Source of the DNA: Komagataeibacter sp. FNDCR2
Lineage (GTDB): Bacteria > Pseudomonadota > Alphaproteobacteria > Acetobacterales > Acetobacteraceae
Direction of reading: 5' to 3'
Assembly: GCF_021295395.1 (NCBI RefSeq)
Contig: NZ_JAIWOU010000001.1
Coordinates: 127,001-191,000 of the forward strand
DNA: 64,000 nucleotides
Shown here one piece after another: positions 59,229 to 63,550 of this stretch. The notes below the pieces were generated by a model, which made no database searches, was not told where the DNA came from, and worked only from the letters and a program-made list of their open reading frames with translations. Position numbers and translations under genes: made by a program. Position 1 is the first letter of the stretch; every line of letters begins with the position of its first letter.

Positions 59229-60243
59229 TCACACCCGCCATCCTTCGGTGCCGTGATCAGAGAAAATACAGGGCAATACCTGTCCTTTTTTGGTTCCAAG
59301 TGCACGGACGACATCGGCGTGGCACTCAGGCTCCACCATGAAGATCATGAAACCACCGCCGCCCGCGCCTGAAACTTTGCCTGCCAGCGCGCGCCGTATC
59401 ATAAATGTCATCAAGCATCGGATTGGAAATGCCATTACTTGTACGTTTCTTATTTTCCCAACCTTGCCCCAGAATGCGGGCAAAGGCCGACATGTCACCA
59501 CGCAACAGTGCCGCCTTCATGTCTACGGCGTCCTGCTTGAGTGCCATGGTGGCTTCGAGGCTTCTTATATCGCCGTCCGTCACATTAGCGATCTGACTGT
59601 CGATCACGGCGGAGGAGTTGCGTGAAACTCCTGTGCTGAACAGCACAAGCGACGATTCAAGTTCTGAGGCGATCCAGCGTTTGACACGCAACGGATTGAC
59701 AATCACCTGAGAACCTGCATTGAATTCCAGAAAATTAAAGCCGCCGAAGGTAGCTGCGTATTGATCCTGCTTGCCGCCTGACATGCCAAGATCAACCCGC
59801 TCGATTTCGTAGGCGAGATGCGCGATCTCATATTCACCTAGCGGCAGTTGAAGATGTTCCACAAAAGCCTTGAGGATGGCCACGACCATGGTGCTTGATG
59901 AGCCCAGCCCCGACCCGGGTGGCACATCTGCGCTCGTGATCAGTTCGACCGGTAGGGGCATACCCCCATTGAAATCGCGCACGATGCGGTTATACACCCC
60001 GGCATGCAGTGGCAGTGAATGGTCAAGCGGGAGCGCCGCTTCGGCGGGGCCTGACCATTTCATTTGCAGGTCATTGGCGCGAAATACCACCCGCTGGTCT
60101 TCCAGTGGTTCCAGCATGGCGTAGGAATAAAGACTGATCGTCGCGTTTAAGACGTACCCGCCATATATATCGGAAAATGGAGGCAGATCAGTTCCGCCTC
60201 CGGCTAGTCCCAGCCTTAATGGCGCCCGTGCCCGTATCTTCAT
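59229..60243 (-). pseudogene. hddA: GHMP kinase, D-glycero-D-manno-heptose-7-phosphate kinase-like (HddA), frameshifted near 3' end
   Basis: The N-terminus RAPLRLGLAGGGTDLPPFSD, ATP loop PPGSGLGSSSTMVVAIL and VDLGMSGGKQDQYAATFGG match HddA-type kinases, which phosphorylate heptose-7-phosphate at C1. At about 59395, in GC-repeat DNA, the frame is lost: GHMP motif 3 (GKVSGAGGGGFMIFMV) and the C-terminus (to 59229) are in another frame, while the main frame stops at 59326. A small deletion (residues expected between DTARA and LAGKVSG are missing) fits best. The truncated kinase would lack motif 3 and be inactive. A sequencing error in the GC-rich run is an alternative. Confidence 0.82.
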
Positions 60244-61005: not shown

Positions 61006-61439
61006 TAAGGCACCACGCTTTATTATGGCCGAAACCAGCCCTGTCGATTTTAAAGTGGATTATACCTATTTTGCTTAAATCTACACAACAATGATTATTG
61101 TAACTTAATATGAAGAACAAACGTTCTTTGCTCAATAAACGGGAAATATTTCTTTGTCAATACCGGGAGTAGATTTTGTCATGAGCATGAGTGTCATAAA
61201 GAAAGCGCAATCGAACCCGAAATATCCTTAAAGTTGTTTCCATTGGTTTGTGGAATTATATCCCATATAGTATAGTATTTTGTATTGAGTAGCCCTTGGT
61301 TTCCTAGGTTTTTACCTCTTTTGTGGCATGATTTTGACATATTTCTAATCCACTATAGGAGACTGGAATAAGTAGGCTGCCAACGCTGGGCTGCGAGCAG
61401 GTGGAAGTTCTGCGGCCATTATTATCTGGCACACGGGGT
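61006..61439. promoter_or_regulatory. A/T-rich leader region of the glycan operon
   Basis: About 430 bp without a gene, much richer in A/T than the operon. A perfect inverted repeat AAGAAC-AAAC-GTTCTT lies at 61113-61128, about 110 bp upstream of the first ATG, and could be an operator or a hairpin. Promoter elements cannot be fixed by eye. Confidence 0.45.
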
Positions 61440-61913
61440 TTACGACGTGTGGATCACCGTCGGGTTATCAGCGGGATCGTTTGTGTGATCTGACCCTGCC
61501 CCCAATGTGCCTTCAGATCCGAGTTGGGGTCTGTGGGTTGTTGTGTGCCCTGTAGGCGTGATGCCATTGAGACTGGTGTGGGGCCTGACGGCGTTATAGC
61601 CGGCCCGCCAGATGTCAATGACCGAGCGCGCGTGGATAAGATTGCGGAGCAGATGCATTCGTGACGAACCCGTTCTGCTGCGGCTTTCCCGGCCGAGCAG
61701 GAGTTGCAGCCGCTTCAGCTTCGTGTTCTCCTTTTCAAAATCCTTGAGCCGCCACGCGTCCGCCTCCTCCATCCCGGCATATTTCGATCGGCAGGTGTGG
61801 AACGTTGCATCGCTGTTTCCGTGCTTGCGGCACAGATCCGCTGCCGTGGCGCCTGCCTGATGCTCCTTCAAAATTCCGATGATCTGGTCCTGTGTGAAAC
61901 GCGTTTTCTTCAT
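61440..61913 (-). pseudogene. IS3-family remnant: OrfA N-terminus fused to OrfB C-terminus
   Basis: The frame starts MKKTRFTQDQIIGILKEHQA with GATAADLCRKHGNSDATF, a typical IS3/IS407-type OrfA with HTH and leucine-zipper start (EKENTKLKRLQLLLG). It then jumps to IWRAGYNAVRPHTSLNGITP, the C-terminus of OrfB. The integrase core between is deleted, so this is a non-autonomous deletion derivative. Confidence 0.82.
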
Positions 61914-61977
61914 CGTCTGTCCTCAATGGACAGACCTTACTTCAAATCGAGGGCATTTCAGGGGGGCAAGGTCATGA

Positions 61978-62045
61978 CCAGCGCGCTCATACATTCACGT
62001 CCGCGATCCAAATCGCGGCAAGCTTTGTCTTCTATCTCAAAAAAT
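61978..62045 (+). mobile_element. Terminal fragment of an IS5 type B-like element
   Basis: CGCTCATACATTCACGTC to TATCTCAAAAAATGATTCC matches the last 70 bp of type B elements (RCAHTFMSAIHIAASFIFYL coding region plus end) with several changes. The terminus is decayed (TGATTCCTAAGC). Confidence 0.65.
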
Positions 62046-62224
62046 GATTCCTAAGCGTGGAATAAACATGTAATTTTCGATGTTATCAATGCTTAGGATT
62101 AAAAATGCGTCATGCAATGATGTTTCTATGGAGGGGTCGGGTTGGTCTGGTTTTGAAATAATTATATATGGGATATATAATTCTTATTTATTTGGAATTT
62201 ATGTATAATATGAAGGAAGAAAAA

Positions 62225-63319
62225 ATGTCAAATAGAGAAAACTTCTCTCAGAATACGATAGATAAACTTGCAAAGCGTGTATCTTATAAATGCTCTTATC
62301 CTGGTTGTGATAATATAACCGTGGGACCTTCTATGGAGAAAGAGGATAGCACATCCAGCACTGGAATGGCGTGCCATATATATGCTGCAGCTAAAGGAAA
62401 GGGAGCGCGTCGAATATCAGAAGATTCTTCAATAGATTTATCTGGATACAATAATGGAATCTGGATGTGTTATAAGCATGGAAAGAAAATAGACACTGAC
62501 GAAAAAAAATATACTCCTGAATTATTATTGGAATGGAAAAGGGTAAGAGAATCAATATCAGAAACTGAACATTCTTTTTCAGGTAATAGTTATCGAAATA
62601 TAATAAATAATATAAAAATAGCTAAAAATTCAATAGAACTGAATTCTGATAGTTTTCAATCTGAAATATCAGATTTTATGGATCTTACATATGCACGTAA
62701 AATATGGGGAGACGATATTTTTTTTTCGATAAGAGAATTTATAACCGAAGTAGTAAGAAATTCTTTTTCGCATGGAGGGGCTAATAAAGTAGAAATTATT
62801 TCTAATGGGTCTATATCAATTATAGAAGATGGGAAAGAATTTGACATATTTTCACTTTCTACTAATTGTTCAGGTAGGGGAGGGCATATGTCAGTAAAAA
62901 ACTTGCTTGATACTTATGAGGGAAATGTTTTAATTTCATCAAGTAGGGAAAACTCAAAAAATATTATATCTGTTTTTGTTGTGAATAATCTAGAAAACAT
63001 AAAAGAGTATACAAATTGTTATTTGGATTTTGATGAACGAGATATTCTTTGTAGTGATAAAAAACTAATTTCCGTTATAAATGAATCATCTATTTATGAT
63101 GGATGTGGATGTATTTATATAATATCGAATTACGGAATGACTTATACATGTGTCGAGCCACTTAAAAATCAAATAATGGAAATTAAATCGTCCGAAGTTC
63201 ATGCATCAAAAAAAATATTTTTAGTTTATAATGGAATGTCTAAAAATCTTAAGGAATATATGGAAGAAAACATTCCAGATGTAAAATTTATAAAAACAGA
63301 TAGGATTAAGAAATATTGA
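62225..63319 (+). CDS. HNH-like zinc finger fused to GHKL-type ATPase domain; novel architecture
   Basis: 364 residues from the ATG at 62225 behind GGAAGAAAAA; an upstream ATG at 62168 lacks such a site. The N-terminus has Cys23-x4-Cys28 (KCSYPGCDN), MACHIYAA (His51), NGIWMCYKHGKKID (Asn77, Cys82, His85), an HNH-like pattern as in HNH-associated defence proteins. The middle carries GHKL-like boxes: EVVRNSFSHGGA (N box, Glu175, Asn179, His183), IIEDGKEFD (Asp202, G1 box) and GRGGHMSVKNLL (217 on, G2 box). I know no named family. Strongly A/T-rich, flanked by IS debris, so recently acquired. A nucleotide-gated nuclease role is inference. Confidence 0.65.
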   Translation: MSNRENFSQNTIDKLAKRVSYKCSYPGCDNITVGPSMEKEDSTSSTGMACHIYAAAKGKGARRISEDSSIDLSGYNNGIWMCYKHGKKIDTDEKKYTPELLLEWKRVRESISETEHSFSGNSYRNIINNIKIAKNSIELNSDSFQSEISDFMDLTYARKIWGDDIFFSIREFITEVVRNSFSHGGANKVEIISNGSISIIEDGKEFDIFSLSTNCSGRGGHMSVKNLLDTYEGNVLISSSRENSKNIISVFVVNNLENIKEYTNCYLDFDERDILCSDKKLISVINESSIYDGCGCIYIISNYGMTYTCVEPLKNQIMEIKSSEVHASKKIFLVYNGMSKNLKEYMEENIPDVKFIKTDRIKKY

Positions 63320-63375
63320 TTTATTAAAATGAGCGAGATATTGTAATTCACAGTCTTTTCAATAAAAATGAGGCT

Positions 63376-63550
63376 GTGAATAACGTATTTTTGCTTTCTG
63401 AGTGCCAGTATGGAGAGGATCAAGTGGTATTTTTCTCTGGCGCATGGGAGTGCGCACGTGGATGACTGGCGGGTTCTGAGCGGGATCGCTTATGTGATCC
63501 GAAACGGGCTTCAGTGAAAACATACTTCGAAAGAGTATGCCCCTCACAAA
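63376..63550 (+). mobile_element. Decayed IS5 type B first-frame remnant
   Basis: Across shifting frames the DNA reads NNVFLLSEC, AHGSARVDDWRVLSGIAYVI and RNGLQ, matching the start of type B transposase. Several indels. No terminal repeat is recognised. Confidence 0.65.

What the first reader, a model, noticed from the sequence alone, without database searches (positions are those of the whole stretch)
62225..63319. A/T-rich HNH-GHKL fusion gene: candidate new defence or signalling protein
A zinc/HNH-like N-terminus followed by a GHKL-like ATP-binding fold (N, G1 and G2 boxes visible) is an uncommon combination. Composition is far from the host average and the gene is nested in IS debris at the edge of a glycan locus, typical of mobile defence genes. 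No partner gene is adjacent, so it may act alone.
Basis: partly seen in the sequence, partly recalled or inferred. Interest (0 to 1): 0.65.

Follow-up and report, generated by a model that had tools for sequence, protein, structure and literature searches.

The report
Lone HNH nuclease with GHKL switch
A foreign-looking, very A/T-rich gene wedged between two broken insertion sequences encodes a probable DNA-cutting (HNH) domain joined to a kinase-like ATP-binding domain; its few known relatives sit in a phage or near bacterial genes of anti-phage type, so it is most likely a one-gene anti-phage weapon of a new design.

Summary
The gene is real: 62225-63319, 364 aa, 29.6% GC in a 55.5% GC window. 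Residues 4-110 form an HNH nuclease domain, homologous to a solved HNH endonuclease and to SAVED-domain effectors. Residues 135-254 fold like GHKL anti-sigma-factor kinases (Z 8.1-9.1). Three other full-length relatives were found: in a Rhizobium phage beside the large-terminase gene, about 3 kb from BREX-like genes, and next to HATPase and DUF4062 genes. A fifth protein, L030, carries the same GHKL type behind an Mrr-like nuclease: a nuclease swap like that between Cap5 (HNH) and Cap4 (REase). The gene lies between two degenerate copies of one 852-bp IS5-family element, without a partner gene. Best explanation: a stand-alone nuclease held inactive, and released on infection, by a nucleotide-binding GHKL switch. 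Activity, trigger and target are inferred, not shown. Seven literature searches (listings, and passages of five papers) showed no HNH-GHKL fusion. New variant of a known kind.

The parts
62225..63319 (+). HNH-GHKL fusion gene, 364 aa, single gene without adjacent partner
   Evidence: Open frame; one match in the genome; full-length relatives at 33-34% identity in three unrelated sources
62234..62554 (+). HNH nuclease domain (residues 4-110): CxxxxC and CxxH zinc-type ligands, H51, N77, H85 (roles assigned from knowledge of HNH families)
   Evidence: PDB profile matches 9om4 (1.2e-7) and 8ysq (1.2e-5) over this part; PADLOC PDC-M68A 9.8e-17 and CBASS endonuclease effectors
62627..62986 (+). GHKL (HATPase) domain (residues 135-254): N-box E175/N179, G1-like E201-D202-G203, G2-like G219-G220
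   Evidence: Model pLDDT 73-89 by ten-residue block except 211-220, the G2-like loop, at 48; the 9 best VIA rows are all from anti-sigma-factor complexes, Z 8.1-9.1
62987..63316 (+). C-terminal alpha/beta domain (residues 255-364), fold not settled; T308 at a helix N-terminus is Ser/Thr in 5 of 5 aligned sequences
   Evidence: Model pLDDT 63-86 for residues 255-360; alignment; STAS profile test gave no support
62153..62181 (+). sigma-70-like promoter TTGAAA-17-TATAAT, 11 of 12, 43 bases before the start codon
   Evidence: Pattern scan; the total number of sites in the region is at the chance level (7 against 7.6)
61415..62060 (+). Left remnant of the 852-bp IS5-family element: pieces 61415-61490 and 61983-62060, split by other IS sequence
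   Evidence: blastn against intact copies in the same genome; end 62060 extrapolated from the aligned end 62056
61491..61978 (-). Relic of another IS (IS3-like by eye) inside the left IS remnant
   Evidence: 69-90% identical stretches on contig C3; family name recalled from the look of ORF 61440-61913
63301..63549 (+). Right, truncated copy of the same IS5-family element; its first bases supply the last codons (RIKKY, stop)
   Evidence: Aligned to IS positions 1-248, 78% identity

Best explanation
It is a single-gene anti-phage (or anti-plasmid) nuclease. The N-terminal HNH domain cuts DNA. The GHKL domain binds a nucleotide and, in a dimer, holds the nuclease inactive until infection changes its nucleotide or protein partner; the nuclease is then released. 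The C-terminal alpha/beta domain probably senses the trigger or regulates the GHKL domain. Shown here: domain content, conserved residues of catalytic type, exchange of nuclease heads, IS remnants on both sides. Inferred: recent acquisition (from composition), nuclease and ATP activity, dimerisation, trigger, defence.
For: HNH: PDB matches to 9om4 'HNH endonuclease' and to SAVED-domain proteins 8ysq and 7rwm, with invariant ligand- and catalytic-type residues. GHKL: VIA Z 8.1-9.1 to anti-sigma-factor structures over 92-119 residues; profile alignment to 5 RsbW-like proteins in the right register, P 0.0024 (Prob 12%), against 0.35 for the reversed profile and 0.058 against a STAS profile. Modularity: L030 joins the same GHKL type to an Mrr_cat_2-like nuclease and scores 45 bits with the 4-member profile, against 19-27 for 6 other GHKL proteins (6 of the 16 other GHKL-part matches). 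The HNH domain heads other C-termini in prophages, a plasmid and a restriction gene cluster. L030's nuclease part matches 67 plasmid records, none over 80% of the protein. Setting of relatives: phage RHph_N28_2, antisense between terL and DUF2280 genes; BREX-like genes; HATPase_c_3 and DUF4062 genes. Precedents, passages read: VcSduA, GHKL plus nuclease, phage defence (PMC12137116); Cap5 HNH-SAVED and Cap4 REase-SAVED (PMC8568899).
Against: No activity data. The model does not confirm the HNH fold (pLDDT below 50 over residues 1-96) and leaves the G2-like loop at 48. The G1-box aspartate is Glu in this copy, so ATP binding may be weakened. Foldseek gave no match at E 0.001 or better in PDB or viral models, and the VIA tool notes that models without a clear Foldseek match typically reach Z 7-8, so Z 8-9 is a modest margin. 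HATPase matches in relatives (0.0097; 0.0063) are below Pfam's gathering score. PADLOC has no model for two L002 neighbours or L030, and neither the L002 HATPase neighbour nor L030 has a PDB match. Only 4 full-length members are known, so context could be chance. This gene's own neighbourhood is a glycan locus and IS debris, not a defence island.
Confidence: 0.6

Rival explanations
1. A prophage-type superinfection-exclusion or lysogenic-conversion nuclease: carried by temperate phages and other mobile elements to block competing phages, here captured between IS copies. Works as in the best explanation, but its normal carrier is a phage, not the cell.
For: One of the 3 other full-length relatives is in a phage, antisense between terL and DUF2280 genes. 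The HNH domain alone is in P2-EC46 and Yersinia phage 31.17 genes annotated as lysogenic conversion.
Against: The other two full-length relatives lie on bacterial contigs whose ORF lists over 17 kb show no phage structural genes by eye (PHROGs was not run on their neighbours); none is seen by eye near the window gene.
Confidence: 0.2
2. A signalling or transcription-control protein: the GHKL domain acts as an anti-sigma-like kinase and the HNH-like part is only a zinc DNA-binding finger without nuclease activity.
For: The best fold matches are from anti-sigma-factor complexes: RsbW, SpoIIAB and UsfX types.
Against: H51, N77 and H85 are invariant beside the zinc-type ligands, as expected of a nuclease; the HNH domain is replaced by an Mrr-like nuclease in L030, which fits cutting better than binding.
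Confidence: 0.1
3. A dying remnant: IS insertion trimmed the 3' end and the G1-box change inactivated it, so it no longer works in this strain.
For: IS-derived last five codons; Glu for Asp in the G1 box; IS decay on both sides.
Against: Frame fully open, HNH residues and the N-box kept; relatives end at about the same column, so no domain is lost.
Confidence: 0.1

Closest known systems
Cap5 (CBASS HNH-SAVED effector) and Cap4 (REase-SAVED)
   Same: N-terminal HNH domain related by sequence; the sensor module accepts either an HNH or a REase-type nuclease (PMC8568899, passages), as our GHKL module does (L030)
   Different: Sensor is a GHKL domain plus alpha/beta domain, not SAVED; no cyclic-nucleotide synthase gene seen beside it
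VcSduA (GHKL-containing Shedu, PMC12137116, passages)
   Same: GHKL ATPase domain and nuclease in one protein; phage defence shown there, control by the GHKL proposed there
   Different: Nuclease is PD-(D/E)xK DUF4263 at the C-terminus and GHKL is N-terminal; here HNH is N-terminal and the GHKL is nearest to anti-sigma kinases and histidine kinases
RsbW/SpoIIAB anti-sigma-factor kinases
   Same: Closest fold of residues 135-254
   Different: Fused to a nuclease; G1-box Asp replaced by Glu; no sigma-factor or STAS gene seen adjacent (by eye)
P2-EC46 Z-region ORF2 and related phage/plasmid HNH proteins (phrog_34329, phrog_21516)
   Same: Same HNH domain, 33-48% identity in the listed rows
   Different: Different C-terminal halves, one resembling phage baseplate protein
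MORC/paraMORC GHKL proteins of restriction systems (PMC2292703, passages)
   Same: GHKL ATPases coupled to nucleases, HNH among them, in predicted restriction operons
   Different: There the HNH enzyme is a separate gene and the GHKL has an S5 domain; here a fusion with a small GHKL

Membership tests
HNH (beta-beta-alpha-metal) nuclease | Zinc-type ligands plus His and Asn catalytic residues | tested here: met
   C23, C28, H51, N77, C82, H85 invariant in 4 of 4 distinct members; aligned to solved HNH proteins
HNH (beta-beta-alpha-metal) nuclease | Fold | tested here: inconclusive
GHKL superfamily | Bergerat-type ATP-binding fold | tested here: met
   VIA Z 8.1-9.1 in 9 rows, all from anti-sigma-factor complexes, the next row at 6.8; the margin over the tool's stated noise (Z 7-8) is modest, but rows 11 and 12 are the histidine kinase DesK, also GHKL
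GHKL superfamily | N-box Glu/Asn | tested here: met
   E175 and N179 invariant in 5 of 5
GHKL superfamily | G1 D-x-G and glycine-rich G2 | tested here: inconclusive
   D-x-G in 4 of 5, E-D-G in this copy; GG invariant in 5 of 5 but shorter than the classical GxGxG (classical form recalled)
CBASS Cap5 | SAVED domain | tested here: not met
   Matches to SAVED proteins stop at profile position 133 and no PADLOC match goes beyond residue 147; residues 135-254 are GHKL
CBASS Cap5 | Adjacent CD-NTase gene | tested here: inconclusive
   Only IS remnants flank the gene between 61415 and 63549; ORF lists on both sides read by eye show none, but no profile was run on the neighbours
Shedu / VcSduA | DUF4263 PD-(D/E)xK nuclease | tested here: not met
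   No DUF4263 in Pfam at E up to 1; the PADLOC SduA match (1.8e-5) covers only residues 4-122, the HNH part
RsbW-type anti-sigma kinase | Kinase activity on a STAS partner | not testable with these tools
   Needs biochemistry
STAS domain (for residues 255-364) | STAS profile similarity | tested here: inconclusive
   hhalign against 30 STAS sequences P 0.46, reversed control 0.43: no support; shallow 5-sequence profile and no domain-only model

The most novel reading that the evidence does not exclude
A complete partner-switch in one chain controls a defence nuclease: an RsbW-like GHKL kinase next to a STAS-like C-terminal domain whose conserved Ser/Thr (T308, at a helix N-terminus, Ser/Thr in 5 of 5 sequences) is phosphorylated to keep the HNH domain off. 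Infection (nucleotide depletion or a phage protein) breaks the cycle and frees the nuclease. This would move stress-sigma-factor logic into phage immunity, with nuclease heads that can be exchanged. The one profile test of the STAS part gave no support.
Probability: 0.1. Interest if true: 0.8.

Novelty: new variant of a known kind. Interest (0 to 1): 0.5.

Why it matters
Nuclease defences such as Cap5 and Shedu are controlled by SAVED or other sensor domains. A small histidine-kinase/anti-sigma type GHKL domain that accepts either an HNH or an Mrr-like nuclease head would add a sensor class, probably nucleotide-gated, and would let defence searches use the GHKL module rather than the nuclease as bait. 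The gene is only 1.1 kb and apparently self-sufficient, so it is easy to test.

Tried and rejected
Pfam and NCBIfam name neither domain in the window protein. The weak Cyclophil_like match (0.16 full length; 0.015 on a fragment) was rejected as chance: it is below cut-off and overlaps the GHKL fold. Rows that cover the C-terminal domain in the structure comparison (Vps33, a CNNM2-ARL15 complex, a succinyl-CoA synthase and others) are at Z 5.0-6.6, a level the tool warns may mean only a common arrangement, so no family is claimed. The STAS idea for the C-terminus was tested and found no support: P 0.46 against 0.43 reversed; single-sequence runs gave P 0.025-0.61 in inconsistent registers. DUF4325 was sought and found in 1 of 31 genomes, not pursued. 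Similarity of L030 beyond the GHKL part is uncertain: the profile match runs to position 330 of 356, but the later test aligned only the GHKL part. Six of the 16 other GHKL-part matches were read as candidate swaps and rejected: five by eye are histidine kinases or pieces of them, one (L102) another GHKL protein; the other ten were not fetched. Single-sequence structure prediction was useless (pLDDT 35). Viral-contig scans with P0001, two alignments, L030, P0002, P0006 and P0007 found no relative. DNA searches for the gene region in plasmids and phages found nothing. A paper search for P2-EC46 found nothing.

Rarity: one place covers at least 80% of the protein in 1 of 50,697 phage records and in 0 of 72,556 plasmid records. 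By peptide pattern, an insensitive method, 2 loci in the 84,980-species collection. Genome scans, whose loose first look is not exhaustive and scored only 6 or 10 candidates in some genomes: beyond the query genomes themselves, no full-length match among 99 others (3 matched the HNH part), 297 others (6 partial) and 294 others (31 partial, L030 among them). With profiles of the part after the HNH domain, only short matches in the GHKL part: 4 of 397 others, 29 of 295, 2 of 288. These sets overlap partly.

Full report
WHAT IS THERE. The frame 62225-63319 (+) encodes 364 aa. It has one match in the 3.29-Mb genome. GC is 29.6% for the gene and 55.5% for the window. A TTGAAA-17-TATAAT site lies at 62153-62181, but promoter-like sites in the region are at the chance level, 7 against 7.6 expected.

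ITS BORDERS. The gene sits between two degenerate copies of one 852-bp IS5-family element. Intact copies exist elsewhere in the genome. In the plasmid collection 15 records match it, 10 over at least 80%, in Acetobacter, Gluconobacter, Zymomonas, Komagataeibacter and Kozakia (genera of all 15); 8 of the 10 listed carry an 'IS5 family transposase' there. The left copy survives as 61415-61490 and 61983-62056 (79.5% and 83.8% identity), split by another IS relic. The right copy begins at 63301 and is cut at 63549 (IS positions 1-248, 78% identity). Both are in the same orientation. The last five codons and the stop (RIKKY*) therefore come from the IS end. Relatives end at about the same alignment column, so the IS seems to have landed at the very end of the gene without removing a domain. 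To the left is a glycan locus (ORFs, named by eye); to the right an oxidoreductase-like ORF about 1.3 kb beyond the gene (L052:6595-7665, named by eye). No partner gene is adjacent.

DOMAIN 1, HNH (4-110). A single-sequence search of the PDB hits 9om4 'HNH endonuclease' (2.6e-5) and 8ysq, a SAVED-domain protein (0.0054). The family profile gives 1.2e-7 and 1.2e-5, and 7rwm at 0.017 (a fourth row, a designed protein at 0.095, was ignored). PADLOC's best models are PDC-M68A (9.8e-17) and CBASS HNH/SAVED effectors; none of the 11 matches goes beyond residue 147. The residues expected for zinc binding and catalysis (roles recalled) are invariant in 4 of 4 distinct full-length members (A1 held 5 rows, two of them the window protein). 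The structure model does not settle this domain (pLDDT below 50).

DOMAIN 2, GHKL (135-254). The model built from three sequences (window, L002, L003) has pLDDT 73-89 by ten-residue block here, except 48 at 211-220, the G2-like loop (mean for the whole protein 63.3, pTM 0.64). Foldseek's best PDB row is from the RsbV/RsbW complex (E 0.014), mixed with histidine kinases and unrelated Rab GTPases, and no row reaches E 0.001; the viral library also gives none, its best rows being mostly histidine kinases. In the second look by VIA-align the nine best rows all come from anti-sigma-factor complexes (RsbW, SpoIIAB and UsfX types; that the chain is the kinase is read from the residue ranges and titles), Z 8.1-9.1 over 92-119 residues, and the following row is at Z 6.8. 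The tool notes that models without a clear Foldseek match typically reach Z 7-8, so the margin is modest; the agreement of the rows and the conserved N-box carry the case. A profile comparison with five RsbW-like proteins aligns the N-box Glu and Asn and the G1 region in register, P 0.0024 (Prob 12%), against 0.35 for the reversed profile and 0.058 for GHKL against STAS.

DOMAIN 3 (255-364). An alpha/beta domain, pLDDT 63-86 over residues 255-360, ending beta-alpha-beta-alpha-beta. Its family is unsettled: structural rows are at the noise level (Z 5.0-6.6), and a test for STAS against 30 STAS sequences gave no support. T308, at the start of a helix, is Ser or Thr in 5 of 5 aligned sequences, in a gappy alignment.

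RELATIVES. Full-length: L002 in a Helicobacteraceae MAG, L003 in a Mariniphaga MAG and EVB88_007 of Rhizobium phage RHph_N28_2, 33-34% identical to the window protein. Their settings: the phage gene is antisense between the large terminase and a DUF2280 gene. L003 lies about 3.1 kb beyond BrxA-, PglZ- and BrxHI-like genes (E 5.3e-10, 6.2e-42, 1.7e-254). L002 is followed by a 603-aa HATPase_c_3 protein (3.4e-13), a DUF4062 protein (5.1e-29) and a RhuM gene (1.5e-42); PADLOC matches only the last of these, as a candidate family. HNH-part matches without the rest occur in 131 plasmid records (60 rows listed). C-termini that I read and found different: the P2-EC46 and Yersinia phage 31.17 lysogenic-conversion genes, an E. 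coli plasmid protein, a protein inside a type I restriction gene cluster on pSULKU03 and, in another genome of the window's genus, one with a RecF-like ATPase part (L009).

A NUCLEASE SWAP. L030 (same order as L003) encodes a 374-aa protein with an Mrr_cat_2-like N-terminus (4.7e-4, just under the gathering score: 20.5 against 22 bits), with D and QxK residues seen by eye, followed by the same type of GHKL domain (profile E 9.8e-12, 44.6 bits; the next GHKL-part match in that scan has 28.9). With a profile of the four HNH members it scores 45 bits; six other GHKL proteins from the same hit list, 6 of 16, score 19-27. PADLOC and the PDB gave no match to L030. Its nuclease part matches 67 plasmid records, none over 80% of the protein; in the 30 listed the match ends at residue 217 or before. 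So both sides look like exchangeable modules. The published parallel is SAVED, which pairs with HNH (Cap5) or REase (Cap4) (PMC8568899, passages read).

HOW IT PROBABLY WORKS. By analogy with Cap5 and with VcSduA, a phage-defence protein whose authors propose that a GHKL ATPase domain controls the nuclease (PMC12137116, passages read), the GHKL dimer would hold the HNH heads apart or inactive and release them when its nucleotide state or partner changes during infection. That is inference. Shown are the parts, the conserved residues, the exchange of heads and the IS setting.

NOVELTY. Seven literature searches on combinations of HNH, GHKL, HATPase, histidine kinase, STAS and Shedu terms gave no description of an HNH-GHKL fusion in the titles and abstract starts listed (10 of 18 papers, 2 of 3), nor in the passages read of five papers (PMC12137116, PMC12839542, PMC8568899, PMC2292703, PMC7824862). 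PMC2292703 describes GHKL (paraMORC) genes in predicted operons with HNH genes, not fused, in the passages read. PMC12839542 lists HNH variants around BREX without GHKL in the passages read, though it mentions Schlafen RNases fused to a minimal histidine kinase, which is the same design idea with another effector. PMC3710099 was seen in listings only. The library lacks most subscription papers, so prior naming elsewhere is possible.

Noticed in passing
L005:488-1594 and L006:4001-5140: The same HNH domain heads proteins of P2-EC46 (Z region) and Yersinia phage 31.17 whose C-terminal part resembles baseplate proteins (phrog_975 5.6e-9 and phrog_120 7.8e-7 for P2-EC46, 3.9e-5 and 1.2e-4 for the other): possibly a nuclease with a phage-tail mimic as sensor.
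   Followed up: partly
L030:1423-2547: Mrr-like nuclease joined to the GHKL module, next to an IS transposase (by eye): nuclease swap of the window protein.
   Followed up: yes
L012:7992-9539: Same HNH domain on a 515-aa protein placed right after a restriction subunit S gene inside a type I restriction gene cluster on plasmid pSULKU03.
   Followed up: no
L002:9186-13248: GHKL (HATPase_c_3) protein with a possible C-terminal nuclease motif by eye, then DUF4062 and RhuM genes, directly after the full-length relative: possible defence cluster.
   Followed up: partly
L009:1474-2754: In another genome of the window's genus the HNH domain precedes a RecF-like ATPase part (1.3e-5, below the curated cut-off).
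   Followed up: no
L003:9079-9831: 250-aa gene just after the L003 relative, no match in PADLOC, Pfam or NCBIfam; looks cyclase-like by eye.
   Followed up: no
window 59229-60243 (-): A GHMP-kinase-like gene appears split over two frames (ORFs 59326-60243 and 59229-59501), suggesting a broken gene in the glycan locus (by eye).
   Followed up: no
window 62094 and 63301: Short direct repeat TAGGATTAA on both sides of the gene, the right one being the IS end (by eye; not tested against chance).
   Followed up: no
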